Origin: Terrabacter aerolatus
GTDB lineage: Bacteria > Actinomycetota > Actinomycetes > Actinomycetales > Dermatophilaceae
Assembly (NCBI RefSeq): GCF_007991735.1
Contig: NZ_BJYX01000014.1
Coordinates: 1-64,000, forward strand
Reading direction: 5' to 3'
DNA length: 64,000 nt
The notes under the pieces are model-generated. The model searched no databases. It saw only the letters and a list, made by a program, of their open reading frames with translations, and had not been told where the DNA came from. Within the stretch, counting starts at the first letter, position 1. The number at the start of each line of letters is the position of its first letter. Both the position numbers and the translations under genes were made by a program. Shown here piece by piece: positions 1,291 to 64,000 of the stretch.

Positions 1291-2292
1291 TCAGTGACGG
1301 AGCGGCTCGAGGACCAGGTGGTCGCCGTCCCAGCTCACGGCATACGGGTCGGTGATCTCCCCGACGAAGGCGCGGTCGCGGTCGTGGACGAACGCGAGGA
1401 ACCGCGTCTCCCCCGTCGCGCGGTCCGTGACGAACTTGCCGACGTAGAGCGACGGGTCGTCGATGACCTGGGCGCCGGCGATGTCGTAGGGCCCGAGCGG
1501 CCCCTCGGCGTCCGCGATCCAGACGCCGCCCGTCGCGCCCTCGGCCCGTGCCGCCTCCGGCATGTCGCCGACGAGGCAGTTGAAGAGCAGCACCTGCCGG
1601 CCGTCCACGACGAAGGGCTGGAGCACCTCGAGCTGGCCGAACCCCTGGCCCGGCTCGGTCAGCGGCTCGCGCAGCTCCCACGTCTCGAGGTCCGCCGACC
1701 ACGCGTGCCCGACGACGCCGCGGTCGACGGCGTCACTGCGGTCCACGACCTCGCCGTCCCCGTCGCCGTCGACGGTAGCGCCGTGGTTGGCGCGGGCCGT
1801 GATGAGCATGTGCCAGCCGTTGCCGTCGGGGTCGGCGAGCACCCACGGGTCGCGGAACGCCTCGTCGTGCCAGTGCCCGTCGGCGTACGTCTCGTACCAC
1901 CGGGCATCGGCCGACAGCACCGGCCCCGGCGCCTTGTCCCACACGTGGAGGTCGGTCGACACGGCATACCCGATCGACTGCACGTTCGCGCCCGCGTCGT
2001 TGAGCGAGGCGCCCGTGTAGAACATGAACCAGCGCCCGTCCGGGTGGCGCACGACCGACCCGGTCCACGTCGCGAGGTCGTCGAAGGCCGGCGGATCCGA
2101 GCGGACGAGGGCGTCGGTCACCCGCTCCCAGTGCACGAGGTCGGTCGACACCGCATGGCCGACCGACGCACGGTGGTGGCGGGCGTGCGGGTCACGCAGC
2201 GCGCGCGACGCGTAGAGGAAGAACAGGTGGTACCGCTCGCCGTCGTCGACGGTCCAGAAGTCCCACACCCAGGCCTCGGGGAGACGAAACAC
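1291..2292 (-). CDS. GH32-like five-bladed propeller glycoside hydrolase
   Basis: The 333-residue protein looks like a beta-fructosidase-type glycosidase of clan GH-J. Clues are an N-terminal WVWDFW (the position of the family's nucleophile Asp), the FRDPWV motif near residue 145 (RDP of GH32) and a Glu in GQLEVLQP near 225 where the acid/base is expected. Repeated strands such as VGHAVSTDLVHWE and IGYAVSTDLHVWD are typical propeller blades. There is no signal peptide, so it probably acts in the cytoplasm on imported oligosaccharide. The start is GTG, preceded by GGTGGAG. GH43 is the main alternative. It contains two copies of the CGGCATAC octamer. Confidence 0.8.
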   Translation of the reverse strand: MFRLPEAWVWDFWTVDDGERYHLFFLYASRALRDPHARHHRASVGHAVSTDLVHWERVTDALVRSDPPAFDDLATWTGSVVRHPDGRWFMFYTGASLNDAGANVQSIGYAVSTDLHVWDKAPGPVLSADARWYETYADGHWHDEAFRDPWVLADPDGNGWHMLITARANHGATVDGDGDGEVVDRSDAVDRGVVGHAWSADLETWELREPLTEPGQGFGQLEVLQPFVVDGRQVLLFNCLVGDMPEAARAEGATGGVWIADAEGPLGPYDIAGAQVIDDPSLYVGKFVTDRATGETRFLAFVHDRDRAFVGEITDPYAVSWDGDHLVLEPLRH

Positions 2293-2339
2293 GACTCCAC
2301 CCTTTCACGCCGGCGGAGGGGACTGTCGGTGGTCGCCCG

Positions 2340-2345
2340 TAGTGT
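2340..2345 (+). promoter_or_regulatory. -10 box of a probable leaderless promoter
   Basis: TAGTGT lies six bases before an ATG at 2352, with no Shine-Dalgarno sequence between. That spacing is what leaderless actinobacterial genes show. It supports 2352 as a genuine translation start and therefore bears on whether the HNH gene downstream is interrupted. Confidence 0.5.
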
Positions 2346-2351
2346 CGTTTC

Positions 2352-2609
2352 ATGGCAGGGGATACAGACGTGCTCGAGCTCCTGAGGAGCCGACTCGCCG
2401 ACATGGAGGCGCGACAGCGCTCCCGCGGCGGCACGTCTGCGCGCGATTTCTGGGAGCGCTTCGCGGGTCGTATGCCGTCACCCTCGTCCGCCTCCGACGC
2501 GTGCTCCGCGCCCGCTGGCAGCGCGGACGGGAAGGGCCGCCGGCAGGCACGTCGCGTCGCGCCCGAGACGCGACCGGTCACTGCTGGGCACGGGCCGTGG
2601 TCCGAGTAG
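2352..2609 (+). CDS. Probable N-terminal fragment of the DUF222-HNH gene
   Basis: This 85-codon frame starts with MAGDTDVLELLRSRLADMEA and ends at TAG 2607-2609. It is in the same reading frame as the HNH gene that follows. The 12 codons between this stop and the next start at 2646 are also open and protein-like (SSESLAALDPGN). The leaderless-type -10 box sits in front of this ATG, whereas the GTG at 2646 has no evident ribosome binding site. The simplest reading is one gene of about 549 codons broken by a single stop; a small separate protein is possible. Confidence 0.5.
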   Translation: MAGDTDVLELLRSRLADMEARQRSRGGTSARDFWERFAGRMPSPSSASDACSAPAGSADGKGRRQARRVAPETRPVTAGHGPWSE

Positions 2610-2645
2610 TCGAGCGAGAGCCTGGCGGCGCTCGACCCAGGCAAC

Positions 2646-4001: not shown

Positions 4002-4122
4002 CTGCCCCGCCCCGCTCCCCGCCCAGGCCGGTGGGGACTGAGGCATGCCCGCTGGACGCTGGGAGCGGCATGCAGCCCCGTCGGGTACCAATGGAACGAC
4101 CCACCCCAGCCAAGGAGCCGCC

Positions 4123-4649: not shown

Positions 4650-7622
4650 ATGACCGCAACGGTGTGGCTCGTGCCCCACACGCACTGGGACCGTGAGTGG
4701 TACGAGCCCTTCCAGCGCTTCCGTCTGCGCCTCGTCGACCTCATGGACGACGTCGTCGCCCGGGCCGCGCGGGAGCCGGACTTCCGGTTCACCATGGACG
4801 GCCAGATGGCCGCGGTCGACGACTACCTCGAGGTGCGACCGGAGCAGACCGAGGCGGTGCGAGCGCTCGTCGCGCGCGGCCAGCTGGCCATCGGGCCGTG
4901 GCGCGTGCTCATGGACGAGTTCCTCTGCTCGGGCGAGACGATGATCCGCAACCTCGAGATGGGCTGGGCCGACGCGTCGCGCCTCGGGACGGTCATGCCG
5001 ATCGGCTACCTGCCCGACATGTTCGGCCACTGCGCGCAGATGCCGCAGCTGCTCCGGCACGTCGGCATCGAGCAGGCGGTCGTCTACCGGGGCGTACCGG
5101 CCGAGGTCGACAGCCACGAGTTCTGGTGGCGCTCCCCCGACGGCACGGGCATCCGCACCGAGTTCCTCGCCAACAGCTACGGCAACGCCGCCGACGTCTT
5201 CGGCAGCGGCGCCGCCTCCGAGCGCCTCGCGGCCCGCCTCGCCACGCAGTCGCAGTGGTACGCCGGGGACTTCCTCGCGATGTACGGCACCGACCACGCC
5301 GCTCCCCTCCCGTCGCTCATGAGCGAGGTGGCCGAGGTCGACCGCGACCCGGACGGCCCGCGGCTGCGGGTCGCCACCCTGACCGAGTACCTTGCCGAGC
5401 CGCGCCACCCGCGCGAGGCCCTGCGCGTCGTCGACGGGGAGCTGCGCAGCCACGCGCGCGCCAACATCCTGCCCGGTGTGCTCTCCGTGCGGTGGCAGCT
5501 CAAGGAGGCGATGGCCCGCACCGAGCGGCTGCTCACCCGCTACGCCGAGCCGTTCGCGGCGCTGCACCTGCAGACGCTGCCGGCGCACTACCTCGCGATG
5601 GCGTGGCGACGGGTCGTCGACTCCTCGTGCCACGACTCGGTGACCGGGTGCGGCGTCGACGAGACCGCCGTGCAGGTGCTCGCCCGCCTCCAGGAGGGGG
5701 AGCACGCGGCGCAGGCCGTGCGCGACCGGGCGCTCGTCGTTGCCGAGGTGACGAGCCCCGTCGGGTCGGTCGTCGTCGCGAATCCGCTCGCGGCAGAGCG
5801 GCACGACGTCATCGAGCTCACGCTCCCGGTGCCCGCGGACTGGGAGGCGGTCGGGTTCGAGCTGCCCGACGGCAGGGTCGTTCCCGCGCAGGAGATCTCG
5901 CGGCCCGCTGCCGAGCTGGCGCGTGAGACGGTCGCGGCCGCCGACCTGCCGCGGCTCATGCACCGGGTGCACGACCGCGAGCTGTTCGGGCTCCAGCTGA
6001 GTCGCATCGAGATCGACACGGTGGACCGCCGACTGACCTTCCACCTCGCCGACCACGGCGACCCCGACTTCGACGCCATCGCCGAGGAGGCGCGCCTGCG
6101 CCAGGCCGCAGCCGAACCGGGGGTTGATGCGGCTTGGGATGTCGTCACCGCGGACGAGCCACGGCGCCGACTCGCTGCGTCCGTCCCCGTCCCCGCCCTC
6201 GGCTGGGCCGCGCTCCGCGTCGCCGAGCTGCCCACCGACACCGACACTCGCGCCGACACCAACATCGACACCGGTATCGACACCGGTACCGCGACCGGCA
6301 CCGGCACCGGCACCGCGACTCGTACGTCATCCGAACCCGCGTCGCTCATCGCGCCGACTCCGGCGCCGGCGTCTGCGGGTGCGGGTCCTGACGCCATCGC
6401 GGGGACCGTGACGAGCGCGCCGACGACGGCGCGGTCGAGCGCGACCGGGCGGGACGGCATACGACAGGGCGAGCGGAGTCTCGACAACGGGATCGTGCAG
6501 GTCCGCGTCGACGACGACGGCACCCTGACGGTCACGGCCGGCGGGGTCACCCTGCGCGGGGTCGCGCGCCTCGTCGACGGCGGCGACCCGGGCGACTCCT
6601 ACAACTACGCGCCACCGGCGGACGACGTGCTCGTCAGCGAGCCGACACACGTCACGGTCGAGCCCGTCGGCAGCAAGGGACCGGTGCTCGGGGCGATCCG
6701 CGTCGAGCGGCGCTACGAGCTCCCCGTCACGAGTGACCTCGCCGGGCGGTCGGTCTCGACGGAGTCCAGCACGGTCACGATGCACGTCGAGCTGCGCGCC
6801 GACGAGCCCTTCGTCCGGCTGACGCTCGACTGGCAGAACGTCACGCGCGACCACCGGCTGCGCCTGCACGTCCCGACGGCAGAGCCGGCGACCGGGTCGC
6901 ACGCCCTGGGCCAGCTCGCCGTCGTCGAGCGCGGCCGCACCGCGGAGGCGGGTCCGGTCGGCGAGCACCCGCTGCCGACCTTCCCGGCCGAGCGCTTCGT
7001 CGACGCAGGGGGCGTCGCGGTCCTGCTTGGCCGCACCGTCGAGTACGAGGTGGTCGACGCCGGACCCGAGGCGGCTGGAGGCACTGAGATCGCGGTGACG
7101 GCGCTGCGGTCCATCGGCTACCTCAGCCGCAACGTGCACCCCTACCGGAGCGAGCCGGCCGGACCCCAGCTGCCGACGCCCGACGCGCAGGCACTCGGCC
7201 CCTGCCACCTCTCGGTCGCGGTCATGCCGCACCGGGGCTCGTGGGCCGAGGCCCGGGTCGCCGAGGCGACCGAGGCCTACCTCCACCCCGTCGTCGTGAC
7301 CCGTGGCGCCGGACCCACGGGAGGGCCCCTGCTCGCGCGCGAGGGGCTGGCCCTGGCCGGCGACGGGGTCGAGCTCGTCTCGCTGCGCCGTCGCGCCGAC
7401 GCCGACACGGCCGTCGAGGTGCGGGTCGTCAACCTGTCCGACCGGCCCACGGTCGCCGTCCTCGGGTCGGGCGCCGCTCCTGTCGGTGCGGGTGTCGTCG
7501 TCGACGGTCTCGGCAGACCGGGTGACCCGCTCGAGGCGACGGACGGTCGCGTGCGAGTTCCCCTGCGCCCTTGGAAGATCGCCGCGGTCAGGGTGGAGAT
7601 CGAAGCACCGCTCGGGTCGTGA
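4650..7622 (+). CDS. GH38 alpha-mannosidase
   Basis: The 990-residue protein starts MTATVWLVPHTHWDREWYEP; HTHWDREW is the zinc-binding signature of class II alpha-mannosidases. The nucleophile Asp is expected in LPDMFGHCAQMPQ near residue 124. The middle helical domain (SVRWQLKEAMARTE) and long beta-sandwich C-terminus match GH38 architecture. It hydrolyses alpha-mannosides, probably intracellularly since no signal peptide is visible. It lies next to the sugar ABC locus on the opposite strand, which may supply its substrate. A low-complexity Asp/Thr/Gly insert interrupts the region around residues 529-561. CATGAT eight bases before the ATG could be a leaderless -10. Confidence 0.92.
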   Translation: MTATVWLVPHTHWDREWYEPFQRFRLRLVDLMDDVVARAAREPDFRFTMDGQMAAVDDYLEVRPEQTEAVRALVARGQLAIGPWRVLMDEFLCSGETMIRNLEMGWADASRLGTVMPIGYLPDMFGHCAQMPQLLRHVGIEQAVVYRGVPAEVDSHEFWWRSPDGTGIRTEFLANSYGNAADVFGSGAASERLAARLATQSQWYAGDFLAMYGTDHAAPLPSLMSEVAEVDRDPDGPRLRVATLTEYLAEPRHPREALRVVDGELRSHARANILPGVLSVRWQLKEAMARTERLLTRYAEPFAALHLQTLPAHYLAMAWRRVVDSSCHDSVTGCGVDETAVQVLARLQEGEHAAQAVRDRALVVAEVTSPVGSVVVANPLAAERHDVIELTLPVPADWEAVGFELPDGRVVPAQEISRPAAELARETVAAADLPRLMHRVHDRELFGLQLSRIEIDTVDRRLTFHLADHGDPDFDAIAEEARLRQAAAEPGVDAAWDVVTADEPRRRLAASVPVPALGWAALRVAELPTDTDTRADTNIDTGIDTGTATGTGTGTATRTSSEPASLIAPTPAPASAGAGPDAIAGTVTSAPTTARSSATGRDGIRQGERSLDNGIVQVRVDDDGTLTVTAGGVTLRGVARLVDGGDPGDSYNYAPPADDVLVSEPTHVTVEPVGSKGPVLGAIRVERRYELPVTSDLAGRSVSTESSTVTMHVELRADEPFVRLTLDWQNVTRDHRLRLHVPTAEPATGSHALGQLAVVERGRTAEAGPVGEHPLPTFPAERFVDAGGVAVLLGRTVEYEVVDAGPEAAGGTEIAVTALRSIGYLSRNVHPYRSEPAGPQLPTPDAQALGPCHLSVAVMPHRGSWAEARVAEATEAYLHPVVVTRGAGPTGGPLLAREGLALAGDGVELVSLRRRADADTAVEVRVVNLSDRPTVAVLGSGAAPVGAGVVVDGLGRPGDPLEATDGRVRVPLRPWKIAAVRVEIEAPLGS
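6235..6330 (+). repeat. In-frame Thr/Asp/Gly low-complexity insert in the GH38 gene
   Basis: Repeated ACCGACAC, ATCGACACCGGT and ACCGGC units encode a run rich in DT, TG and IDTG. It falls between conserved GH38 segments and probably forms a flexible surface loop. The repeat units are short and degenerate, consistent with slippage. Confidence 0.7.
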
Positions 7623-7634: not shown

Positions 7635-8918
7635 CTAGCCGCAGAGGGCGTGGACGACCCGGTCCTCGTCCTCGAGCCAGCAGGGGCCCGACCACGCCGG
7701 CAGCCGGAAGCGGTCGCCGAGGACCCGACTCCGTCCTCGACCGGACCCGCTCAGCAGCAGGCCCTCCGCGCCGACGGCGACGAACTCGTCCCCGACCCGG
7801 GCGACGACCGGCCCGTCGACCGAGCCACTGACCGCGGTCCGGCCGGCGCGCACCGCCCCGACGACGTCGTCTCCCTCGGCCAGCACCCACGTCGTCGGCG
7901 ACCCGGGGAGCCCGTCGTGCCCGTGCTGGTGGAAGTCGCTGCCACCGATCGGCACGGTCTCCGGCGTCAGGAGCCACCACGCCAGGGGCGCTCCCCACGT
8001 CGGCACCGAGGCCCACGAGGAGTGCCACACCTCCGCCACGGCCGGACGGTCGACCGGCAGCAGCCAGGCGCAGTCGGCGGCGAGCGGGTGATTGATCGAC
8101 AGCACCCCGCCGCGGCTCTCGGCCTGCGTCGCCCACGTCTCGGGCGGGCTGCGGAAGTCGACGAGCCCGACGTCGCCGATGACGTTGGCGTGCCCGACGT
8201 CGCGCGTCACCTCCTGCCCCGGCACGAGGACGATGCCGTATGCCGCCGCTGCCGCCGGCAGGTGGGCGTGGTGGCTCGTCGTGTTGTGGTCGGTGACGGC
8301 GAGGAAGTCGAGGCCCCGCGACACCGCCAGCCCGGCCAGCCCACCGACCGAGAGGGCGCCGTCGGAGTGCACGGTGTGCGAGTGGAAGTCACCGGCGAGC
8401 CAGCGCATCCCGTCCACGTCCGGCAGACGCGACGCCGGACCCGCACGACGCGCGGCCGGACGATCCACGCCCGACCGACCCTCTGCGGACGGATCGGAGG
8501 CCGCGGGAGGATCCGCAGGCTCGGCACGCCGGTGCTCGGCCACGACCGAGTCGCCGACGACCTGCACCGTGAGCTCCATCGTCACGCCGTCGGCCGGGAC
8601 CCGGTGCAGCCCGATGAGCACGCACCAGGTCCCGGCCTCGACCGCCTGGGGCACGTAGCCCGGGGTCGCCCACCCCTGCGAGACGACGACACGGCTCCGT
8701 GCCCCACCCGACCAGCCGACGTAGCCCCGAGGCCCCTCGAGGCCCAGGTCGAGCACGGAGCCCGGCCCGGCGGCATACGTCATCTGGATCTCTACCGCGC
8801 CGACCTCACGCGGCACGTCGAAGCCGACCGTGCGGATCTGGGACTCCGCGCGGTCGTCCGGACGCCAGTGCCGCGTCACGCGCAGCAGCGTCGAAGGTGA
8901 GGTGAGAGGTGAGGTCAT
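7635..8918 (-). CDS. PHP-domain metallohydrolase, CehA/McbA family
   Basis: The 427-residue protein has an N-terminal beta-rich domain of about 150 residues and a C-terminal PHP phosphoesterase domain. Metal ligands are visible in GDFHSHTVHSDGALS (near residue 176), VTDHNTTSHHAH, GQEVTRDVGHANV, LSINHPLA and GGSDFHQHGHDG. Family members hydrolyse phosphoester or carbamate bonds. It begins 13 bases after the stop of the ABC ATPase gene on the same strand, so it is the last gene of the sugar-import operon. This suggests its substrate arrives through that transporter, for example a phosphodiester-linked sugar. Confidence 0.85.
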   Translation of the reverse strand: MTSPLTSPSTLLRVTRHWRPDDRAESQIRTVGFDVPREVGAVEIQMTYAAGPGSVLDLGLEGPRGYVGWSGGARSRVVVSQGWATPGYVPQAVEAGTWCVLIGLHRVPADGVTMELTVQVVGDSVVAEHRRAEPADPPAASDPSAEGRSGVDRPAARRAGPASRLPDVDGMRWLAGDFHSHTVHSDGALSVGGLAGLAVSRGLDFLAVTDHNTTSHHAHLPAAAAAYGIVLVPGQEVTRDVGHANVIGDVGLVDFRSPPETWATQAESRGGVLSINHPLAADCAWLLPVDRPAVAEVWHSSWASVPTWGAPLAWWLLTPETVPIGGSDFHQHGHDGLPGSPTTWVLAEGDDVVGAVRAGRTAVSGSVDGPVVARVGDEFVAVGAEGLLLSGSGRGRSRVLGDRFRLPAWSGPCWLEDEDRVVHALCG

Positions 8919-10011: not shown

Positions 10012-10925
10012 CAGCTCTTGATGCCTCCATGGAAACGGAACCCGTAGCGCCGGTTGACGAACAGGTAGAGCGCCACGACCGGCAGCGCGTAGACGAGTGA
10101 GAACGCCGAGATGAGAGGCAGATTCGCCTGCCCGCCCTCCGAGTAGAACGTGTACATGACGACGCCCGCGGGCAGCTTGGTCGGGTCGCGCAGCAGGATG
10201 TACGAGGTGAGGAAGTCGCTCCACACGTTGACGAGCGCCCAGACGGCGATCGTCGCCAGCCCCGGCCGCACGATGGGCAGCACGACGTGCCGCAGCACCT
10301 GCAGCGGCGTCGCGCCGAAGACGCGGGCGCTCTCCTCGTAGGACTTCGGGGTGGCGTCCATGAAGTCCTTGAGGATGAAGATCGCCGCCGGGAGCAGTCC
10401 ACCCGTCAGCACGAGGATGACGCCCGAGCGGTCGTCGACGAGGTTGAGCGCGAACATCAGCTGGAAGATCGGGACCATCGCCGCGGTGCCCGTGACGATC
10501 GAGCTGAGCAGCAGCAGCCCGTAGAGGATCGTGTTGCGTCCCGGGATCCGCACGCGGGAGAGGGAGTATGCCGCGAGCGCCGCCATCACGGTCACGCCGA
10601 GCATCGTGCCCACCGCGAGGTAGACGGAGTTCTTGAGCGAGGAGAAGGCGTACGGGTTCTCCGAGAGCTTGCGGAAGTTCTCGAGCGTCCAGTCGGGCCA
10701 GCTGACGTCGAGGCCCGGGTGGGAGTTGAACGGGGCCGTCACCAGCCAGAGCATGGGCAGCGCCCAGAAGGCGATGGCCGCCGCGACGAAGGCCGTGATC
10801 GCCAGGCGGCCCACGACCGACCGCGCCGACACGGGTGCCCGCAGAGATCTCGGCGCTGTCCTCGGCGCTGTCCTCGGCGCTGTCCTCGGCGCTGTCCTCG
10901 GCGCGGTCCTCCTGCCCCCGGTCAT
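10011..10925 (-). CDS. Sugar ABC transporter permease (MalG type)
   Basis: The 304-residue membrane protein has six predicted helices and the EAA coupling loop (YEESARVFGATPLQVLRHVVLP, starting near residue 203) that docks onto the ATPase. The C-terminus NRRYGFRFHGGIKS is typical of MalG-type carbohydrate permeases. Its cytoplasmic N-terminus carries five TAPR repeats encoded by 12-bp tandem units. The ATG overlaps the upstream permease stop by four bases (ATGA). Confidence 0.92.
   Translation of the reverse strand: MTGGRRTAPRTAPRTAPRTAPRTAPRSLRAPVSARSVVGRLAITAFVAAAIAFWALPMLWLVTAPFNSHPGLDVSWPDWTLENFRKLSENPYAFSSLKNSVYLAVGTMLGVTVMAALAAYSLSRVRIPGRNTILYGLLLLSSIVTGTAAMVPIFQLMFALNLVDDRSGVILVLTGGLLPAAIFILKDFMDATPKSYEESARVFGATPLQVLRHVVLPIVRPGLATIAVWALVNVWSDFLTSYILLRDPTKLPAGVVMYTFYSEGGQANLPLISAFSLVYALPVVALYLFVNRRYGFRFHGGIKS
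10849..10908 (-). repeat. 12-bp tandem repeat, five units, at the 5' end of the permease gene
   Basis: Unit CTCGGCGCTGTC on the plus strand occurs five times back to back; the last unit has one change. It encodes TAPR in the permease N-terminus. Since the unit is a multiple of three, copy changes keep the frame. Confidence 0.9.
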
Positions 10926-14187: not shown

Positions 14188-14333
14188 CCGCTCCGGAGCG
14201 GGCACGTGCCGCCGACCTCGAGACGGGGGCGGGGGATGCGCGTGGGATGGACGTGGGGATGGCACCGGCATGCTCGACCGAGGATGCGGCATACGTCCGT
14301 TCCGAGGTTGTTGCCAAGGTTCGTCCATACGGT

Positions 14334-16461: not shown

Positions 16462-16488
16462 ACGGCATACCCGATGGGCGTATGCCGT
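16462..16488. repeat. Inverted pair of the CGGCATAC octamer
   Basis: ACGGCATAC (16462-16470) and GTATGCCGT (16480-16488) form perfect 9-bp arms with a 9-base spacer. The pair lies in the 241-base gap between the divergent CDF and fibronectin-repeat genes. TACGAT at 16586 is the only promoter-like box I noticed in the rest of this gap. Confidence 0.8.
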
Positions 16489-34122: not shown

Positions 34123-34217
34123 CGATCGGGTATGCCGTGTGCACACCAAGCCGTGGACGTGCGGTCTCCGAATCCCGCACGTGACCCGCGAACCCGAGCA
34201 CACGGCATACCCCATCG
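34123..34217. repeat. Nested inverted repeat with two CGGCATAC octamers
   Basis: The outer arms (34123-34142 and 34198-34217) are 20 bp long and differ at one position; each holds a GTATGCCG octamer. Inside, ACGTGCGG (34157-34164) pairs with CCGCACGT (34175-34182). The structure fills the gap between the dehydrogenase stop and the hydrolase start. It could act as a terminator, a protein-binding site or a cruciform. Confidence 0.85.
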
Positions 34218-42217: not shown

Positions 42218-42252
42218 GACCCGGTCCCACGGCATACGACGGCCGTGACGAC

Positions 42253-48522: not shown

Positions 48523-48629
48523 ACCCCTCTATACCCGGCGGGCGAGTCGCACGTCCTCGCTTCGCCGGATCCTGTGAAGTCTGGACAAGGCCCTGCCGCA
48601 CGCAGGCGGGGAAACGTACAGTCGAAAAG

Positions 48630-49559: not shown

Positions 49560-49610
49560 GACCGAGCCTCCGCGCGGAGGCGAGCACCCGGCATACGCCA
49601 TCGACGAGCG

Positions 49611-49662: not shown

Positions 49663-50811
49663 ATGGACGGACAGGCACCCGCTGGTCATGAGGCGCCGCA
49701 CGGTCGCCACGCGCTCGAGCAGGCGCTCTACGAGGTGAAGCGCACGATCGTCGGGCAGGACCTGCTCGTCGAGCGGATGCTCGTCGCGCTGCTCGCCCGC
49801 GGACACCTGCTCGTCGAGGGCGTGCCGGGGCTGGCCAAGACGATGGCCGTCAAGACGCTCGCCCAGGCCATCGGTGGCGACTTCCAGCGCATCCAGTTCA
49901 CGCCCGACCTCGTGCCGGCCGACCTCGTCGGGACGCGGATCTACAACCAGAAGGACGGCGAGTTCCAGGTCTCGCTCGGGCCGGTCTTCGCCAACCTCGT
50001 GCTCGCCGACGAGATCAACCGTGCGCCGGCGAAGGTGCAGAGCGCGCTGCTCGAGGTCATGCAGGAGCGGCAGGTGACGATCGGGCGCGAGACCTATCCG
50101 GCGCCGGACCCGTTCCTCGTCATGGCGACGCAGAACCCCATCGAGTCGGAGGGGACGTATGCGCTGCCCGAGGCGCAGGTCGACCGCTTCATGCTCAAGG
50201 TCCTCATCGGATATCCCTCGGCCGCTGAGGAGTTCGTCGTCGTCGAGCGACAGATCTCGGCTGCTGCGGCGACGGTGCAGGTGCTCGACCCGGAGATGCT
50301 GCGCGGCTTCCAGCGCGAGGCGGACGCCGTCTACGTCGACCCCGCGGTGATCGAGTATGCCGTCCGGCTGGCCACCGCGACCCGGGAGCCCGCGGGCGTC
50401 GGCCGGGACGACCTGGCGCGCCTGCTGACGTACGGCGCGAGCCCGCGGGCCTCGATCAACCTCGTGCTGGCGGCGCGGGCACTCGCCTTCCTGCGGGGGC
50501 GCGACTACGCGCTGCCCGGCGACGTGCGCGACCTCGCCCGCGACGTGCTGCGCCACCGGATCGTCCTGTCCTACGAGGCCCTCGCCGAGGACCTGTCGGC
50601 GGACGACCTGCTGACCCCGATCCTCGAGGCGGTGCCGGTGCCGACGGCTCCGTTGCGCGAGCAGGAGCGCCAGGCCATGCGCGCCGGGCCGTCCGGGTCG
50701 CCCGGCCCGGTCGGGCCGGCGGCGGGGGCGTACGGCGCGGAGTCGGGCGGCATCCCTGCGGGCGGCACGGCCGGGCCGGGTGACGTGACATGGGCGCGAC
50801 CGCCCCGCTGA
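49663..50811 (+). CDS. MoxR-family AAA+ ATPase
   Basis: The 382-residue protein has Walker A GVPGLAKTMAVKTL near residue 48, Walker B LVLADEINRAPAKVQSALLE near 110 and sensor 1 MATQNPIESEGTYALPEAQ near 145. MoxR ATPases act as chaperones that load metal or assemble VWA partners. GGAGG five bases upstream supports ATG 49663. Its end overlaps the DUF58 gene by 22 bases. It leads a four-gene operon with DUF58 and two VWA proteins. Confidence 0.92.
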   Translation: MDGQAPAGHEAPHGRHALEQALYEVKRTIVGQDLLVERMLVALLARGHLLVEGVPGLAKTMAVKTLAQAIGGDFQRIQFTPDLVPADLVGTRIYNQKDGEFQVSLGPVFANLVLADEINRAPAKVQSALLEVMQERQVTIGRETYPAPDPFLVMATQNPIESEGTYALPEAQVDRFMLKVLIGYPSAAEEFVVVERQISAAAATVQVLDPEMLRGFQREADAVYVDPAVIEYAVRLATATREPAGVGRDDLARLLTYGASPRASINLVLAARALAFLRGRDYALPGDVRDLARDVLRHRIVLSYEALAEDLSADDLLTPILEAVPVPTAPLREQERQAMRAGPSGSPGPVGPAAGAYGAESGGIPAGGTAGPGDVTWARPPR

Positions 50812-51704
50812 CCGCCGAGGGCCTGCTGCGACGCCTCGAGTGGAGGGTCGTCCGGAGGCTCGACGGGCGGCTCCAGGGCGACTACCGGACGCTCTTCCGC
50901 GGGACCGGGATCGACTTCACCGACCTGCGGGAGTACGTCCCGGGCGACGACCTGCGGCACATCGAGTGGAACGTCACGGCTCGGCTCGATGAGCCCTACG
51001 TGCGCGAGTTCGTCGAGGACCGCGAGCTGACCGCGTGGCTGCTGCTCGACCACTCGGCGTCGATGGGCTTCGGTCCGGTCGACCGGCAGAAGGACCTCGT
51101 GCTCGCCGAGGTGGCGACGACCCTCGCCCACGTGCTGACCCGGGGCGGCAGCCGGGTCGGCGCGGTCGTCATGGACTCAGGGGTCGACACGGTGATCCCG
51201 CCGGCGTCGGGTCGCAACCAGGTGCTCCGGATCGCCCACCACCTGCTGGGCCGTCGGGTCTCCCGCGCCGGCACGGCGGCCCCGTCGGGGAGCGTCACGG
51301 ACCTCGGAGGGATGCTCGCGGCGGCATACGGCCTCGCGCGGCGTCGCTCGCTCGTGCTCGTGGTCTCGGACTTCATCACGACGGACGGGTGGGAGGCACC
51401 GTTGTCGCGGCTGGCCCGGTGGCACGAGGTGGTCGCGATCCAGGTCATCGACCCCCGCGAGAGCGAGCTGCCCGACGTCGGCGGGGTCTACGTCGAGGAC
51501 GCGGAGACGGGCGAGCAGATCTTCGTCGACACGAGCGACGTCGGCTTCCGGGCCCGGCTCGCGGCGGCTGCGTCGGCGCGGCAGGCGGACCTCGAGGCGC
51601 GGGCACGCAGGGCGGGCGTCGACCTCCACCCGGTGCGCACCGACGACGACCTCGTGCGCTCGCTCCTGCGGATCTCCGAGCTGCGGCGCCGGAGACGGCG
51701 ATGA
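50790..51704 (+). CDS. DUF58-domain protein
   Basis: The 304-residue protein contains the DUF58 motif GTGIDFTDLREYVPGDDLRH near residue 38 and a degenerate VWA-like region starting LLLDHSASMGF near 84. DUF58 genes nearly always follow MoxR. It overlaps the MoxR gene by 22 bases, and its stop lies in the first unit of a 15-bp tandem repeat. Confidence 0.92.
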   Translation: MGATAPLTAEGLLRRLEWRVVRRLDGRLQGDYRTLFRGTGIDFTDLREYVPGDDLRHIEWNVTARLDEPYVREFVEDRELTAWLLLDHSASMGFGPVDRQKDLVLAEVATTLAHVLTRGGSRVGAVVMDSGVDTVIPPASGRNQVLRIAHHLLGRRVSRAGTAAPSGSVTDLGGMLAAAYGLARRRSLVLVVSDFITTDGWEAPLSRLARWHEVVAIQVIDPRESELPDVGGVYVEDAETGEQIFVDTSDVGFRARLAAAASARQADLEARARRAGVDLHPVRTDDDLVRSLLRISELRRRRRR

Positions 51705-52782: not shown

Positions 52783-52783
52783 C

Positions 52784-54042: not shown

Positions 54043-56106
54043 GTGGTCAGAGTCCTCAGACAAGACGTCGGTACGACGGCGCGCCTCCTCGCGGCCTTCG
54101 TCGTCGCCGCGGTCGCGATCGGCGTGCTCGCGGCGGGCATCTCGGCGCCGGCCGTTGCCGGGCTCGGGCAGCTGACGACGGCCGGCGACTCGACGTTCAT
54201 GTCGCTGCCGAGCACGTTCACGGTGGCTCAGCTGACCCAGGGCTCGCGCATCCTCGCCGCCGACGGCTCGGTCATCGCCACCCCGGAGGACACCGACCGT
54301 CGCCTCGTCTCGTTGGGGCAGGTCGCGCCGATCATGCGTCAGGCGCAGGTCGCCATCGAGGACAGCCGCTTCTACACGCACGGCGCGATCGACCCCCAAG
54401 GCGTCACGCGTGCGGTGATCGAGGACCTGCGCACCGGGGCGGCCAGCGAAGGCGCCTCGACCCTGACCCAGCAGTTCGTCAAGATGACGTTGCAGGCCCA
54501 GGCCCTCACGGCCGGCAAGGACGCCGCAGCCCAGGCGGCCGTGGCCAAGACCCTGCCGCGCAAGCTCACCGAGCTGCGGTATGCCGTGGGGCTCGAGCGC
54601 ACGTGGAGCAAGGACCGCATCCTCGAGGGCTACCTCAACCTCGCCTACTACGGCGACGGCGCCTACGGCGTCGAGGCCGCCGCACGCCACTACTTCGGCG
54701 TGCACGCGAGCGCGCTCACCCTCTCCGAGGCGGCGACGTTGGCGGGTCTCGTGCAGAGCCCGAGCACGACCGACCCGGTGAACCACCTGAAGCAGGCCCA
54801 GGCCCGGCGCGACGTCGTGCTGGGCCGGATGCACGACCTCGGGGTCGTCACCACCGCCCAGTGGCAGGCGGCGCTGCACCGCCCGCTCGCCAAGGACCTG
54901 CACGTGACGTACCCGCCGGCCACGTGCGCCGCCTCTCGCTACCCCTACTTCTGCTCCTTCGTCATCAGCTGGCTGGAGGAGCAGCCGGCCCTCGGGTCGA
55001 CCCCGCAGGCCCGGCACGACCGGCTCTTCAGCGGTGGCCTGACGGTGCGCACCACCCTGGACCCGTCGGTCGAGCGGGAGGCCAACGCGGCGTTGCGCGC
55101 CGTCGCGCCGACGAACAACTCGCTCGGCGTGGCAGCCGCCGCCTACGTGACGCAGCCCGGCACCGGTGACGTGCTCGCCCTCGGCCAGGACACGGCATAC
55201 GGCACCAAGGGCGCCGGCGACACCGAGCTCAACTACTCGGTCGACACGAAGTACGGCGGGTCGCGCGGCTTCCAGTTCGGCTCCACCGCAAAGGCCTTCG
55301 CCCTGGTCACCGCCATGGCGCAGGGCCTCGGCACCCAGGCGTCGGTCGACGCGCCGGCTGCGGACAACAACAACCCGGCGACCTTCCACCCCAGTCAGTT
55401 CCCGCAGCCGTGCGGCCTCTCCGGCGACTGGAAGGTCTACAACGACGAGGCGTGGGGCGGCGGCTCGATGCCGCTCATGACCGCGACGGCGCAGTCGACG
55501 AACACGGCCTTCGTGCAGCTCGCGAGCCAGATCGGGGTCTGCGCGATCCACCAGACGATGAAGGCGTTCGGCCTGCACGATGCCAACGGCGGCCCCATCG
55601 GGACCTACCCGCCACAGGTCATCCTCGGCGCGCAGCAGGTGTCACCCCAGACCCTCGCCAACGCGTATGCCGCGATGGCCGCCGGTGGCGTGCTCTGCCA
55701 GACCCGGCCAGTCACGAGCATCACGCAGGGCAGCACGGTGCTGCTCGCCCCGAAACCGTCGTGCACCCGGGTCGCGGACGCCACCGCCGTGAGCCAGGCG
55801 ACCCAGTACCTCGAGTACAACATGACGAACGGTTCGGGCATCCTCAACCAGCTGGCCGGGCGTCCCTCCGCCGGCAAGACCGGCACGGCCGACGGCAACT
55901 CGCAGTCGTGGTTCGTCGGCTACACCCCGCAGCTCGCGACCGCCGTGTGGGTGGGCAACCCGGTCAACCAGAACCGCGCGATGTTCAACGTCTCCATGGC
56001 CGGCAAGAGCTGCACCTCGATGACCGGCGCCTGCTACGCGGCACCGATCTGGCGCCGGATCATGGATGCCGCCCTGGCCGACCAGCCGGTCGCCCCCATG
56101 CCCTGA
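54043..56106 (+). CDS. Bifunctional penicillin-binding protein (class A, GT51 plus transpeptidase)
   Basis: The 687-residue protein has an N-terminal helix near residues 15-38. The glycosyltransferase part shows QVAIEDSRFYTHGAID with catalytic Glu near 105 and GASTLTQQFVKM near 140. The transpeptidase has SxxK in FGSTAKAF near 422, SxN in QSTNTAF near 486 and KTG in AGKTGTADGN near 609. It polymerises and crosslinks peptidoglycan. Several Cys occur in the extracellular part. GTG 54043 has a context like that of the S1C protease. It is monocistronic and a TATCGT box lies upstream. Confidence 0.94.
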   Translation: MVRVLRQDVGTTARLLAAFVVAAVAIGVLAAGISAPAVAGLGQLTTAGDSTFMSLPSTFTVAQLTQGSRILAADGSVIATPEDTDRRLVSLGQVAPIMRQAQVAIEDSRFYTHGAIDPQGVTRAVIEDLRTGAASEGASTLTQQFVKMTLQAQALTAGKDAAAQAAVAKTLPRKLTELRYAVGLERTWSKDRILEGYLNLAYYGDGAYGVEAAARHYFGVHASALTLSEAATLAGLVQSPSTTDPVNHLKQAQARRDVVLGRMHDLGVVTTAQWQAALHRPLAKDLHVTYPPATCAASRYPYFCSFVISWLEEQPALGSTPQARHDRLFSGGLTVRTTLDPSVEREANAALRAVAPTNNSLGVAAAAYVTQPGTGDVLALGQDTAYGTKGAGDTELNYSVDTKYGGSRGFQFGSTAKAFALVTAMAQGLGTQASVDAPAADNNNPATFHPSQFPQPCGLSGDWKVYNDEAWGGGSMPLMTATAQSTNTAFVQLASQIGVCAIHQTMKAFGLHDANGGPIGTYPPQVILGAQQVSPQTLANAYAAMAAGGVLCQTRPVTSITQGSTVLLAPKPSCTRVADATAVSQATQYLEYNMTNGSGILNQLAGRPSAGKTGTADGNSQSWFVGYTPQLATAVWVGNPVNQNRAMFNVSMAGKSCTSMTGACYAAPIWRRIMDAALADQPVAPMP

Positions 56107-57921: not shown

Positions 57922-58284
57922 TCAGTCGCCGGGCGCGTCCGGGCCGTCCGAGACCTGCCGCAGGGTCGCGACCACGGTGACCTCGGGCCAGTGCTCGGCG
58001 AACCTGCGCTGGTCGGCCACGGCGTCCTCGACGGTGTCGTACTTCATGAGCGACCACCCGCCGACGATCTCCTTGGACTCGGCATACGGCCCGTCGTGCT
58101 GGGTGACCTCACCCCGGCTCGACACGAAGTTCACCGCGTCCTCCGTCCCGTACAGCCCGCCACCGTCGAGGAACACGCCCGAGGCGGCCCGCTCGCCGAT
58201 GAAGACGTCCATCGCGTCGAACAGTGCCTGCGGCGGCGTGCCGATGCCCTCTTCCATCCTCACGAAACCCATGAAACGCGGCAT
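57922..58284 (-). CDS. YciI-family (DGPF-type) protein
   Basis: The 120-residue protein has the YciI/DGPF pattern: PRFMGFVRMEEG at the start, TQHDGPYAESKEIVGGW near residue 65 and a C-terminal ferredoxin-like strand set. ATG 58284 follows GGAGGAG. Relatives are often near ECF sigma factors or regulators; here it lies near an SDR/TetR pair. Confidence 0.85.
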   Translation of the reverse strand: MPRFMGFVRMEEGIGTPPQALFDAMDVFIGERAASGVFLDGGGLYGTEDAVNFVSSRGEVTQHDGPYAESKEIVGGWSLMKYDTVEDAVADQRRFAEHWPEVTVVATLRQVSDGPDAPGD

Positions 58285-60037: not shown

Positions 60038-60136
60038 GCGAACCCCCGGCCGAGCCGACCACCCACCGAGCGGCCCGCCCGACCCGGGCACGCGGCATAC
60101 GCCGTCGGTGGTGCTGACGCGGCTAGCGTGTGGCCC

Positions 60137-60654: not shown

Positions 60655-61674
60655 GTGGCTGGGCAGCGCCTCGGGACGGCGTCCCTGACGGACGGGACGA
60701 GGGTCGCGTATGCCGTCACGGGCAGCGGGCCGTTCCTCCTCGTCGCCCCGGGGTGGCTCAGTCACCTCGAGATGGGCTGGGCCATCCCGGCCGAGCGGAT
60801 GTTCCACGAGGCGCTGTCGTCGGGACGGACCCTCGTGCGCTACGACCGCCCGGGCTGCGGCCTGTCCGGCGCCTACGACGGCCCGCGCACCATGGACCTC
60901 GAGGTCGCGACGATCGCGGCCGTCGCCGACGCGGTCGGCGCCGAGCGCTTCGACCTGCTGGGCTGGTCACTGGGGGCGGCGGCGGCGGTGCAGTGGGCGG
61001 CCGAGCGACCCGACACCGTCTCGCGACTCGTGCTCTACGGCGGCTGGCCCGCCGGGTCCGCCATCGGCGACGACGACAGCCGGCAGCACGTGCTCGGCCT
61101 GCTCGCCACGCACTGGGGCCTCGGCTCGGACCTGCTCACGGAGGTCTTCGCGCCCGACGCCGACGCGGGCACGAGGCGCACGCTCGCCCGCTACCAGCGC
61201 GCGGCCTCCTCGGCCGGGACGGCGGTCGCGCTGCTCCGGCTCGCCTACTCGCTCGACGTCACCCCGCACCTCGGGCGGGTGCGCGCGCCGACGCTCGTGC
61301 TGCACCGGCGAGGGGACCGGGCCGCACCCGCGGCCGGGGGACGCGCTCTGGCACAAGCGATCCCGGGCGCCGAGCTCGTCGAGCTCGAGGGCCGCTCGCA
61401 CCTGCCGGCCATCGGCGACGCGCAGGCGGTGGTCGATGAGGTGCGGCGCTTCCTCGGCCTGCCGACGCTGCGCCGGTCCGTCCCGACCGGTCTGACGACG
61501 CGCCAGGGCGAGGTCGCCGCGCTCGTGGCCGAGGGCCTGACGAACCGCCAGATCGCCGAGCGGCTCGACATCTCCGAGCGGTCGGCCGAGTCGCACCTGG
61601 AACGCATCCGGCTACGGCTCGGGTTCAGCTCCCGGTCTCAGGTCGCGGCCTGGTACGTCGCCCGCACCCCGTAG
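60655..61674 (+). CDS. Alpha/beta hydrolase fused to a LuxR-type DNA-binding domain
   Basis: The 339-residue protein has a hydrolase domain (YDRPGCGLSG near 64; nucleophile elbow LLGWSLGAAAAV near 102; Asp in LVLHRRGDRAAP near 220; His in LEGRSHLPAIG near 245) and a C-terminal LuxR HTH (LTTRQGEVAALVAEGLTNRQ, then ISERSAESHLERIRLRL). The fused form suggests a regulator that senses or processes an ester ligand. GTG 60655 is 56 bases after the SnoaL stop; no better start is in frame. Confidence 0.88.
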   Translation: MAGQRLGTASLTDGTRVAYAVTGSGPFLLVAPGWLSHLEMGWAIPAERMFHEALSSGRTLVRYDRPGCGLSGAYDGPRTMDLEVATIAAVADAVGAERFDLLGWSLGAAAAVQWAAERPDTVSRLVLYGGWPAGSAIGDDDSRQHVLGLLATHWGLGSDLLTEVFAPDADAGTRRTLARYQRAASSAGTAVALLRLAYSLDVTPHLGRVRAPTLVLHRRGDRAAPAAGGRALAQAIPGAELVELEGRSHLPAIGDAQAVVDEVRRFLGLPTLRRSVPTGLTTRQGEVAALVAEGLTNRQIAERLDISERSAESHLERIRLRLGFSSRSQVAAWYVARTP

Positions 61675-61682
61675 AGCCCACC

Positions 61683-61754
61683 GAAGACCCCGCGGAAGAC
61701 CCCGCGGAAGATCCAGCGCCAGACCCGCGTCAGACCCCGCGTCAGACCCCGCGC
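61683..61754. repeat. 12-bp tandem repeat, about six units, between the LuxR-hydrolase and mddA genes
   Basis: GAAGACCCCGCG occurs twice exactly, followed by GAAGATCCAGCG, CCAGACCCGCGT, CAGACCCCGCGT and CAGACCCCGCGC. The array starts nine bases after the stop at 61674. Confidence 0.85.
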
Positions 61755-61807
61755 AGTGGGGTAGTTCCACGGCTGCGGCACGGGCACCCGGTCGGCACGC
61801 TGGGCAG

Positions 61808-62599
61808 ATGACCCGACGCATCGCCTTCCTCATCGTCTCCGCCGTCGCATGGTGCGGCTTCGTCGCCGTCACCGCGTGGACGACGGCCTTCCTCGCCGGC
61901 GTGGGGCTGCCCCGCACCGTCGACGGACCCGCGCGATCGAGCACCGGGTGGGCCGTCACCGTCGACCTCGCCCTCCTGCTGCTCTTCGCCGTGCAGCACT
62001 CCGTCATGGCGCGTCGCCCGGTCAAGGCGTGGCTCCGGCGGCGGGTGCCGGCCGAGCTCGAACGCACCACCTACGTGCTCGCCACCGACGCGTGTCTCGC
62101 GCTCCTGCTGGCGCTGTGGCAACCCTGGGACCAACGGGTCTGGCAGGTCGAGGGCGTGACGGCATACGCCCTGTGGTCGCTGTGCGCGGCGGGCTGGGTG
62201 CTGGCGATCGCGGCGACCTTCGCCGTCGACCACCTCGAGCTCATCGGGCTGCGGCAGGCCGGGTGGGGCTCCCACGCGACGACGGGCGCCGACACGTCCC
62301 CGCCGCTCCGGGTCGGCGGGCTGCACGCGGTCGTCCGCCATCCGTTGATGACCGGCCTCGTGGTCGCGTTCTGGGCCACCCCGCGGATGAGCGCGCCCCA
62401 CCTGCTCTTCGCCGTCGCGGCCACCGCCTACGTCATCGTCGGGATCACCTTCGAGGAGCGCGACCTGCGCCGCACGTTCGGTCAGGACTACGAGGCGTAT
62501 GCCGCCCGCGTCCCCGCGCTCGTGCCCGGGCTGCGGCTCCGGTTGCAGCGGGGTGTGGTCGCTGGAACGGGCACCAGCGCGCGGCGCGCCCGTCCCTGA
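61808..62599 (+). CDS. mddA: Methanethiol S-methyltransferase-like (NnrU/ICMT family) membrane protein
   Basis: The 263-residue protein has about five helices and the pattern of MddA/NnrU proteins: [20 protein letters not shown] near residue 59, [20 protein letters not shown] near 92, [20 protein letters not shown] near 175 and [20 protein letters not shown] near 220. MddA methylates methanethiol to dimethyl sulfide using SAM. The function is inferred from the family. Its last 112 bases overlap the end of the P-type ATPase gene on the other strand. Confidence 0.82.
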
Positions 62600-64000
62600 G
62601 ACGTGGAGGCGTCTCCGGGGGCGCTGGGCGCGGCCGTTGTCGCGCGACGGCGGGAGCCCCAGCGCCAGAGCTCGTCGACGCCCCAGACCACGACGGGGAA
62701 GGGGAGGACGAACGCGACCTGCCACGGAGCCGGGGCGGTGGTGCCGAAGACGTCCTGCAGCGGACCCACGGTCACGAGCGCGGCCGCGAAGACCACCTCG
62801 TAGGCGATCCCCCACAGCAGCAGCCGGTTGCTCAGGACCCCCACCCGACGCAGCGACGCGTGCTGGGTGCGGGCGGCCATGGCCGTGCCGACCTGGCATG
62901 CCACGATGCCGAGGAAGCTCATCGTCGTGGCCTGCTGCCACACGTGGTGCAGGGGTCCCGAGGCCACGTCGTCGCCCAGGTGCCAGCCGCCCTGAACCAG
63001 GGTCGTGAGGAAGACGAGCATGACGAGCAGCGCCGAGACACCGCCGAGCAGACCCCACGCGCGGGCCAGCATCGGCACGTCGATGACGTTCTGCGTGCGC
63101 GTCCGGGGCGGACGGGACATCAGCCCCGGCTCGGCGCGCTCGCGGCCGAGCGCGAGAGCCGGCAGGGTCTCGGTGCCGAGGTCGATCGCCAGGATCTGCA
63201 TCACCGTCAGCGGCAAGGGGATCCGGCCCCCGGAGAGCGCGTAGACGAGGAACGGGACGACCTCGGGGGTCGCATGCGCGAAGATGTAGACGATGAACTT
63301 GCGCACGTTGTCGTAGACGCGGCGCCCCGCCTCGACGGCCGCCACGACGGAGGCGAAGTTGTCGTCGGTGAGCACCATCGTCGCGGCCTCCCTCGCCACG
63401 TCGGTACCCGACCGGCCCATGGCCACACCGATGTCGGCCCGTCGCAGCGCGGGTGCGTCGTTGACGCCGTCGCCCGTCATGGCGACGACGTGCCCCTGGT
63501 CCTGCAGGGCGTCGGCGATGCGCATCTTGTCCTCGGGCGAGCTCCTCGCGAAGATCAGCTCCTCGCCCGCCGCGAGGAGCTCGTCGAGCTCGGCCTCCGT
63601 CAGGGCGTCGAGCTCGGCACCGGTGACGACGCGCAGGCCCACCCTCCCGATGCCGACGTCCTCGGCGATGCCGCGGGCCGTCAGCCCGTGGTCGCCGGTG
63701 ACGACGAGGAGTCGTATGCCGGCCGAGTGGCAGCGCGCGACCGCGTCGGCCACCTCCGGCCGGGGCGGGTCGAGCATGGCCGCCATCCCCAGCAACGTCA
63801 GGTCGCGCTCGACCACCTCCCGGGTCAGACTCGTCGGCTCCGCGTCGTCGACGGCGCGCTCGGCCACCGCGAGCAGGCGCAGCCCCTCCTCCGCCCACGA
63901 GGACACGAGCTCATCGAACGACCGACGGTCGGCGTCGGTCAGCGGTCGCTCGTCGCCGTGGGCGCCCACGACCCGCGTGCAGCGCGCCACCAGCTCCTCC
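62488..64000 (-). CDS. Cation-transporting P-type ATPase, 3' part (truncated by window edge)
   Basis: The visible 504 residues contain the end of the nucleotide-binding domain, the hinge motif [40 protein letters not shown], and six C-terminal helices ([36 protein letters not shown]). The DKTGT phosphorylation site lies beyond the window. The pattern is that of Ca2+/Na+-type P2 ATPases. After the normal end (WRWGSRRRA) the frame reads through about 40 further residues that are antisense to mddA. Confidence 0.9.

What the first reader, a model, noticed from the sequence alone, without database searches (positions are those of the whole stretch)
1339..63720. Strongly over-represented octamer CGGCATAC, a possible genome-wide DNA signal
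I counted 41 copies on both strands (23 and 18). With about 72% GC, independent bases would give about two copies in this window. Every heptamer GGCATAC I found has the flanking C. Inside genes it is read mostly as TAT-GCC (Tyr-Ala) or GCA-TAC (Ala-Tyr), using codons otherwise rare here, so selection seems to act on DNA rather than protein. It also occurs between genes and within promoters. Three pairs form inverted repeats. Possible roles are an uptake sequence, a segregation or recombination signal, a methylation target or a regulator site. I know of no described function for it.
Basis: partly seen in the sequence, partly recalled or inferred. Interest (0 to 1): 0.8.

Follow-up and report, generated by a model that had tools for sequence, protein, structure and literature searches.

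The report
Uptake-signal-like DNA word in actinobacteria
A short DNA word is repeated thousands of times in this soil bacterium and in many of its relatives, in a pattern like the 'self' tags that a few other bacteria use to recognise their own DNA when taking it up; if that is its role, such tags exist well outside the two bacterial families where they are known.

Summary
CGGCATAC occurs 41 times in the window (0.96 expected) and 2163 times in the 4.42 Mb genome (reversed-word control 195). Nearest named relatives are Terrabacter. On 464 kb, the excess survives synonymous-codon shuffling (189 in genes against about 9); it is larger between genes. It is lineage-wide: 107 of 186 family genomes carry at least 394 copies. 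In 19 others an unrelated word, CGAAGGGGG, takes its place at similar density. Both words lie equally on both strands, are enriched between genes, form close inverted pairs, and repel copies of the same orientation within about 1 kb. CGGCATAC sites are unusually conserved between Terrabacter species. E. coli Chi sites show neither intergenic enrichment nor repulsion. RecC has no match in this genome. ComEC and secretion ATPases of the pilus family are near-universal, with or without the word. The best reading is a DNA uptake signal in dialects, kept by uptake-biased recombination: new for Gram-positive bacteria as far as my searches show. Uptake was not tested, no receptor was found, and two other over-represented words lack this layout. 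Same-orientation repulsion suggests a directional process, which orientation-blind uptake, as described for Haemophilus, does not predict.

The parts
1338..1345 (+). CGGCATAC copy
1962..1969 (+). CGGCATAC copy
2470..2477 (-). CGGCATAC copy
6455..6462 (+). CGGCATAC copy
8238..8245 (-). CGGCATAC copy
8771..8778 (+). CGGCATAC copy
10566..10573 (-). CGGCATAC copy
14287..14294 (+). CGGCATAC copy
16019..16026 (+). CGGCATAC copy
16463..16487 (.). inverted pair (+ copy 16463-16470, - copy 16480-16487) between two divergent called genes
17493..17500 (-). CGGCATAC copy
19290..19297 (+). CGGCATAC copy
21408..21415 (+). CGGCATAC copy
24105..24112 (-). CGGCATAC copy
24324..24331 (+). CGGCATAC copy
28106..28126 (.). 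inverted pair (+ copy 28106-28113, - copy 28119-28126) inside a called gene
30692..30699 (-). CGGCATAC copy
30856..30863 (+). CGGCATAC copy
32762..32769 (-). CGGCATAC copy
34130..34137 (-). CGGCATAC copy
34203..34210 (+). CGGCATAC copy
42230..42237 (+). CGGCATAC copy
42626..42633 (+). CGGCATAC copy
43876..43883 (+). CGGCATAC copy
46905..46912 (-). CGGCATAC copy
48517..48524 (+). CGGCATAC copy
48842..48849 (-). CGGCATAC copy
49589..49596 (+). CGGCATAC copy
50355..50362 (-). CGGCATAC copy
51322..51329 (+). CGGCATAC copy
54579..54586 (-). CGGCATAC copy
55193..55200 (+). CGGCATAC copy
55665..55672 (-). CGGCATAC copy
58080..58087 (+). CGGCATAC copy
60093..60100 (+). CGGCATAC copy
60708..60715 (-). 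CGGCATAC copy
62160..62167 (+). CGGCATAC copy
62497..62504 (-). CGGCATAC copy
63714..63721 (-). CGGCATAC copy

Best explanation
CGGCATAC (here often ACGGCATACG) is a DNA uptake signal of a naturally transformable lineage of actinobacteria. A surface protein of the DNA-import machine (Tad/Flp pilus, ComEA, ComEC) prefers DNA carrying the word. Fragments with it are taken up and recombined more often, so the word accumulates and is kept wherever coding allows, and cells mainly import kin DNA. Related lineages have switched to other words (dialects). Because copies of the same orientation exclude each other over about 1 kb while opposite copies do not, I infer that each copy serves the DNA on one side only, for example because entry starts beside the bound word and runs in one direction. 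Shown here: excess, codon independence, conservation, layout, lineage distribution, a second word with much the same layout, and presence of import genes. Inferred: that uptake is the process, that the lineage is competent, the receptor, and the directionality.
For: Excess and its lineage-wide spread. Codon-independent. Between genes 1.56 per kb against 0.44 in genes; between convergent genes 1.84 per kb against 0.85 between divergent ones. 16 opposite pairs within 60 bp; 13 are outside called genes, 6 of those between convergent genes, which make up 17% of the intergenic length (my reading of its table). Inverted pairs acting as terminators are described for Haemophilus and Neisseria (PMC7811141, PMC2397512, passages). 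Equal strands and no consistent bias along contigs. Sites identical in 76.5% of 562 pairwise comparisons against 40.9% for octamers of the same GC count. Bias for one orientation within genes, 243 to 104, as reported for known uptake sequences (PMC2346458, first of three parts read). Dialects: CGAAGGGGG replaces CGGCATAC in 19 of 186 genomes with intergenic enrichment, close inverted pairs and same-orientation depletion; eight dialects are known in Neisseriaceae (PMC3630211, abstract and passages). PF00437 secretion ATPases match in 34 of 34 panel genomes, lying in Tad-like clusters in the 21 loci that I looked at, and ComEC matches in 180 of 186; Flp pili with ComEA and ComEC serve transformation in Micrococcus luteus (PMC4322843, PMC6370729, passages).
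Against: No uptake or transformation data for this family were found. ComEC and Tad-like genes are as common in genomes where I detected no word, so they do not track it. No Com or Tad protein clearly stood out in the one same-genus pair with different words. Same-orientation repulsion is not expected if uptake ignores orientation, as reported for Haemophilus (PMC1939737, passages). 17 of 24 one-mismatch words occur at most 4 times, so few decayed copies are seen. Depletion from foreign DNA was not shown. CGAAGGGGG has no orientation bias in genes (96 to 94) and its alternation is weak (90 to 65 at 60-1500 bp); in G142 CGGCATAC does not alternate at 500-1500 bp (16 to 15). CGGCGTAC in G090 (not intergenic-enriched, no alternation) and CGGCATCC in G221 (neither enrichment nor repulsion nor pair excess) are over-represented words without this layout, so excess alone does not prove this kind of signal.
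Confidence: 0.5

Rival explanations
1. A directional recombination or repair signal inside the cell, Chi-like, read by AdnAB or another helicase-nuclease rather than RecBCD, on one strand at a time.
For: Same-orientation copies exclude each other while opposite ones do not, which suits a strand-read signal; Chi words differ between taxa (recalled); CGAAGGGGG is G-rich like several Chi words (recalled).
Against: RecC family PF04257 gave no match in this genome or in motif-rich G009, G041, G079, G139 and G039, though it did match the six other motif-rich panel genomes; it also matched several genomes without a detected word. On 300 kb of E. coli K-12, Chi is laid out differently: 2 of 82 copies between genes, same-orientation clustering (18 pairs against 5.8 expected at 0.5-1 kb), 34 alternating neighbours against 38.5 expected (opposite pairs under 60 bp were 0 with only 0.7 expected, so uninformative). 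AdnAB was not searched.
Confidence: 0.2
2. A mark for a DNA modification or a mismatch-repair bias, as considered for the HIP1 octamer and its methyltransferases in cyanobacteria: an enzyme recognises the word and keeps it.
For: Near-neighbour words are rare, and CGGCGTAC in genes is 14 against 57.6 expected, as if near-copies were converted; HIP1 is linked to methyltransferases (PMC4390886, start of abstract in the listing only).
Against: Does not predict close inverted pairs, enrichment between convergent genes, or orientation-specific spacing. The word is not palindromic. Methyltransferases were not searched.
Confidence: 0.13
3. A structural site for chromosome packing or segregation.
For: Dispersed and more even than random on each strand (gap CV 0.66 and 0.69).
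Against: No consistent strand bias along contigs; whole genera lack it or use another word; a site for packing gives no reason for repulsion of one orientation only.
Confidence: 0.1
4. Ordinary codon and composition bias.
For: Most copies in genes read Tyr-Ala or Ala-Tyr.
Against: Synonymous shuffling leaves 9.3 of 189; intergenic copies are 73 against 1.03 expected.
Confidence: 0.01

Closest known systems
DNA uptake sequence (DUS) of Neisseriaceae
   Same: Thousands of copies, both strands, close inverted pairs, strong conservation, dialects in related genera; the reverse complement GTATGCCGT shares seven bases (ATGCCGT) with the 12-base DUS, probably by chance.
   Different: Different phylum and cell envelope; a minor type IV pilin (ComP) reads DUS there, while the PilM family matched only 7 of 186 genomes here; uptake not tested; the words here include one with no likeness to the rest.
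Uptake signal sequence (USS) of Pasteurellaceae
   Same: 9-10 base word about once per kb, inverted pairs at gene ends, bias for one orientation in genes, more than one subtype.
   Different: Orientation reported not to matter for uptake (PMC1939737, passages); here same-orientation copies repel.
HIP1 (GCGATCGC) of cyanobacteria
   Same: Octamer in great excess across a lineage.
   Different: HIP1 is palindromic; the words here are oriented and form close inverted pairs.
Chi of RecBCD or AddAB
   Same: Oriented 5-8 base word dispersed over the genome (recalled).
   Different: Different layout in the E. coli control; RecC family not found in this genome.
Flp/Tad-pilus natural transformation of Micrococcus luteus
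   Same: ComEC and Tad-like gene sets occur in this family too.
   Different: The term 'uptake sequence' occurs in neither of two M. luteus papers that I searched for it (PMC4322843, PMC8467076).

Membership tests
DUS/USS-type uptake signal | Short word hugely over-represented across the genome on both strands | tested here: met
DUS/USS-type uptake signal | Excess not explained by codon use | tested here: met
DUS/USS-type uptake signal | Enriched between genes, close inverted pairs near gene ends | tested here: met
   12 of 13 intergenic pairs face a gene's 3' end at 17-201 bp, where about 68% would by intergenic length, so gene-end placement alone is modest evidence. for CGAAGGGGG (gene ends of its pairs not checked). 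Not met for CGGCGTAC in G090 or CGGCATCC in G221.
DUS/USS-type uptake signal | Copies conserved more than surroundings | tested here: met
   8 genomes, one locus
DUS/USS-type uptake signal | No replication-linked strand bias | tested here: met
   two contigs; origin not located
DUS/USS-type uptake signal | DNA-import machinery present | tested here: met
   present in genomes without a detected word too
DUS/USS-type uptake signal | Depleted in mobile or recently acquired DNA | tested here: inconclusive
   six gaps over 7 kb, five at 69-72% GC and one at 67%; their gene content was not scanned
DUS/USS-type uptake signal | Word increases DNA uptake or transformation | not testable with these tools
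   needs an experiment
DUS/USS-type uptake signal | Specific receptor (ComP or equivalent) | tested here: inconclusive
   one search found no clear outlier protein in one informative pair
RecBCD Chi | RecC present where the word is present | tested here: not met
   no match in 6 of 12 CGGCATAC-rich panel genomes, this one included
Chi (E. coli-like layout) | In genes, same-orientation clustering | tested here: not met
KOPS/FtsK polar signal | Strand bias along each replichore | tested here: not met
   origin not located
HIP1-type methylation-linked octamer | Palindromic word tied to a methyltransferase | tested here: not met
   the word is not palindromic (sequence); methyltransferases were not searched

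The most novel reading that the evidence does not exclude
Actinobacteria of the Terrabacter family run a dialect-based self-recognition system for DNA import, the first in Gram-positive bacteria, read directionally so that each strand needs its own evenly spaced copies; the word has switched several times, including to an unrelated sequence, creating barriers to gene exchange between genera.
Probability: 0.4. Interest if true: 0.9.

Novelty: new variant of a known kind. Interest (0 to 1): 0.8.

Why it matters
A review that I read in passages (PMC5031613) describes sequence-tagged DNA uptake in two Gram-negative families. A third, independent case in another phylum, with 126 genomes carrying one of two unrelated words (107 and 19 of 186), would give a large natural experiment on how such words arise, spread and switch, point to a new sequence-reading DNA receptor, and offer a way to transform hard-to-modify actinobacteria by adding the word to donor DNA. 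The orientation-specific spacing makes the direction of the process testable from genomes.

Tried and rejected
Presence or absence of machinery as the determinant: ComEC matches in 180 of 186 genomes, PilM in 7 of 186, and PF00437 secretion ATPases in 34 of 34 panel genomes, so none tracks the word. Receptor by divergence: in the same-genus pair with different words (G084/G086) ComEC 63%, ComEA 49%, TadA 65% and TadE 62% identity are like the same-genus, same-word pair G106/G117 (61, 49, 68, 61); TadZ at 40% is lower than in two other same-genus, same-word pairs (50 and 64%) but one pair decides nothing; TadF and Flp could not be compared there. The Tad labels are mine, from order, size and blastp clusters, not from a family search.

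Codon bias, RecBCD-Chi and a polar segregation signal: not supported. Other candidate words: CGGCATCC in G178, GGCGTACG in G014, CGCCGTAC and CGTCGTAC in G084 and CGGCGTAC in G015 pass both codon and intergenic tests on 40-100 kb. CGGCGTAC in G090 passes the codon test but is less dense between genes than in genes. CGGTCTAC in G008 is weak (10 copies). CCGCATCG in G083 is nearly confined to genes (37 of 38) and was dropped. CACCTACT in G184 is mostly a local repeat cluster. No word stood out in G154 and G161 (g47), G038 (g16), G021 (g11), and on only 20 kb each in G097 (g38) and G001 (g2); g12 and g5 could not be judged because my gene caller failed on them. In g47, G159 later showed 1336 CGGCATCC against 310 for its control, so that genus may not be uniformly word-free.

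Literature: (open-access library only; most listings cut at 6-20 titles) showed no report of this octamer as a genomic signal or of an uptake sequence in actinobacteria. Absence there is not proof.
Full report
What is there. CGGCATAC occurs 41 times in the window against 0.96 expected from dinucleotide shuffles, always with the first C. In the whole genome (4,420,518 bases, 62 contigs, unnamed) there are 1091 + 1072 copies; the word read backwards has 105 + 90. The nearest named genomes by leucyl-tRNA synthetase are Terrabacter and Terracoccus at 93-95%, so the host is most likely a Terrabacter. On 400 kb of contig C1 plus the window (266 copies) the base before the word is A in 53%, the base after it G in 61%, and 17 of the 24 one-mismatch words occur at most 4 times.

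It is a DNA-level signal. In 424 called genes of that DNA I count 189 copies; shuffling synonymous codons across genes leaves 9.3 on average (maximum 14 of 30 shuffles), and within genes 16 (maximum 25). Between genes there are 73 copies against 1.03 expected. Density on C1 is 1.56 per kb between genes and 0.44 per kb in genes. Gene calls are my own, by codon usage. CGGCGTAC, one transition away and a natural Tyr-Ala word, is avoided in the genes of C1: 14 against 57.6.

It is conserved. In an alignment of the leuS region of eight Terrabacter or close genomes (own, L047-L050, L058, L059, L095), a copy is identical in the other genome in 76.5% of 562 pairwise comparisons; for all octamers with five G or C the figure is 40.9% of 273,817, and for a set of octamers holding TAT or ATA 45.6% of 3,628. 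These comparisons are not independent, and distant flanks align poorly.

Layout. In 892 kb of the genome (478 copies) same-orientation pairs are depleted: 4 against 24.1 expected at 60-250 bp, 14 against 31.9 at 250-500, 24 against 62.9 at 500-1000, 41 against 62.8 at 1-1.5 kb. Opposite pairs are near expectation except for an excess of -+ pairs under 60 bp (12 against 3.7). Neighbours at least 60 bp apart alternate in orientation 300 times against 153, and same-strand gaps have CV 0.69 and 0.66. At 60-500 bp the alternation recurs in other CGGCATAC genomes: 21 to 3 in G142, 18 to 3 in ten 20-kb loci, 10 to 4 in four named genomes; beyond 500 bp it is not seen in G142 (16 to 15 at 500-1500). 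Of 16 opposite pairs under 60 bp, 13 lie outside called genes; 12 of these face a gene's 3' end at 17-201 bp (about 68% would by intergenic length), and 6 lie between convergent genes (17% of the intergenic length). The window's pair at 16463 lies between divergent genes and is the exception. Density is 1.84 per kb between convergent genes, 1.25 between codirectional and 0.85 between divergent ones; in genes the word is opposite to the gene in 243 and along it in 104.

Distribution. Of 186 genomes of the family, 107 (30 of 53 genera) have 394-4724 copies, 14 have 149-361 and 65 have 111 or fewer (tallied; the weakest of the 107 exceeds its control 2.5-fold, so enrichment is uneven). Of 297 genomes of the order, 273 lie outside the family and none exceeds 177 copies. 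Named loci rich in the word include Terrabacter, Terracoccus, Humibacillus xanthopallidus, Intrasporangium oryzae and Knoellia remsis; Intrasporangium flavum and one Humibacillus assembly have 1 copy in 22-23 kb.

Dialects. Scanning word-poor genomes without a target word gave CGAAGGGGG in G052. Family-wide it has 797-1939 copies in all 16 genomes of g27 and all 3 of g36, and 80 or fewer in the other 167; the same 19 have 41 or fewer CGGCATAC. On 400 kb of G064 it has 279 copies: 2.5 per kb between genes and 0.52 in genes, 3.5 between convergent genes, opposite pairs under 60 bp in excess (+- 17 against 3.0, -+ 6 against 3.1), and same-orientation depletion (5 against 24.4 at 250-500 bp, 33 against 49.0 at 500-1000). 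It has no orientation bias in genes (96 to 94) and alternates only weakly (90 to 65 at 60-1500 bp, 51 to 49 beyond). Two unrelated words thus share most of one anatomy. Variants of the first word pass codon and intergenic tests in G178 (CGGCATCC), G014 (GGCGTACG), G084 (CGCCGTAC, CGTCGTAC) and G015 (CGGCGTAC). CGGCGTAC is abundant in further genera, but in 100 kb of G090 it is less dense between genes than in genes and does not alternate, so I hold that one as uncertain. On a ComEC tree of 28 genomes five labels (G014 and G084 lumped with CGGCGTAC; 'none' counted as a label) need at least 8 changes, or 4 without the 'none' rows; the three CGAAGGGGG rows form one clade, and the two g47 rows without a word sit among CGGCATAC rows (quick tree, several open forks).

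A caution from outside the family. CGGCATCC has 839-4831 copies in 21 of 22 genomes of family f19 and 485 in the last, which is near background (large genomes of other families reach up to 1481). In 100 kb of G221 it survives codon shuffling (161 against 26.8 in genes) but shows no intergenic enrichment, no repulsion and no excess of close pairs. Excess alone therefore does not identify this kind of signal; the case for uptake rests on the combined anatomy.

Machinery. ComEC matches in 180 of 186 genomes. All 34 genomes of a panel have PF00437 secretion ATPases. This genome has three Tad-like loci by inspection, and one Tad-like cluster was recognisable at each of the 20 relatives' loci examined, with some genes missed by my caller. 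PilM matches in 7 of 186. Flp pili with ComEA and ComEC serve transformation in Micrococcus luteus (PMC4322843 and PMC6370729, passages). None of this separates word-bearing genomes from those where no word was detected.

Rivals. RecC has no match in this genome and in five other CGGCATAC-rich panel genomes, and matches in the other six, so RecBCD-Chi cannot be the general basis. E. coli Chi on 300 kb: 2 of 82 copies between genes, clustering of same-orientation copies (18 against 5.8 at 0.5-1 kb), alternation 34 against 38.5 expected. A methylation-linked or AdnAB-read word remains possible; neither enzyme was searched.

Mechanism. Uptake-biased recombination explains accumulation on both strands, conservation, tolerance-driven placement, close inverted pairs and dialects; these are described for DUS or USS (PMC2397512, PMC7811141, PMC3630211, PMC2346458; abstracts, passages or parts read). 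The repulsion of same-orientation copies only is my addition; I did not find it described in the passages read. It suggests that one copy serves one side of itself, as if entry or recombination started at the word and ran in one direction. A paper on Haemophilus reports that orientation does not matter for uptake (PMC1939737, passages), so either these bacteria differ or the process is not uptake. I put uptake at 0.5.

Noticed in passing
G221 = L244-L248 and family f19: CGGCATCC is in excess in 21 of 22 sampled genomes of another family (839-4831 copies; the last has 485), but without the intergenic and orientation layout in G221.
   Followed up: partly
G159 (genus g47): 1336 CGGCATCC against 310 for the control word, while congener G153 has 614; one species of a genus that looked word-free may use this word.
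   Followed up: no
L243 (G198, family f14), 1-20000: The palindrome GCGATCGC (the HIP1 word) is counted 30 times, both strands scanned (15 sites), in 20 kb against 4.2 expected.
   Followed up: no
L159:18439-19652 (G184): Cluster of CACCTACT repeats at 24-base and 59-base spacing in two blocks, possibly an array.
   Followed up: no
L050 against seven relatives, alignment columns 7139-7150: One site has flipped orientation: CGGCGTATGCCG in seven genomes reads CGGCATACGCCG in the eighth, so the word survives on the other strand.
   Followed up: no
own contig C1, first 400 kb: CGGCGTAC is about fourfold avoided in genes (14 against 57.6), as if consumed by or kept away from the main word.
   Followed up: partly
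G144 and G147 (genus g44): Fewer CGGCATAC (625, 836) and more CGGCGTAC (865, 1011) than congeners: possible dialect change in progress.
   Followed up: no
34-genome panel: RecC family is patchy: 20 of 34 panel genomes match.
   Followed up: no
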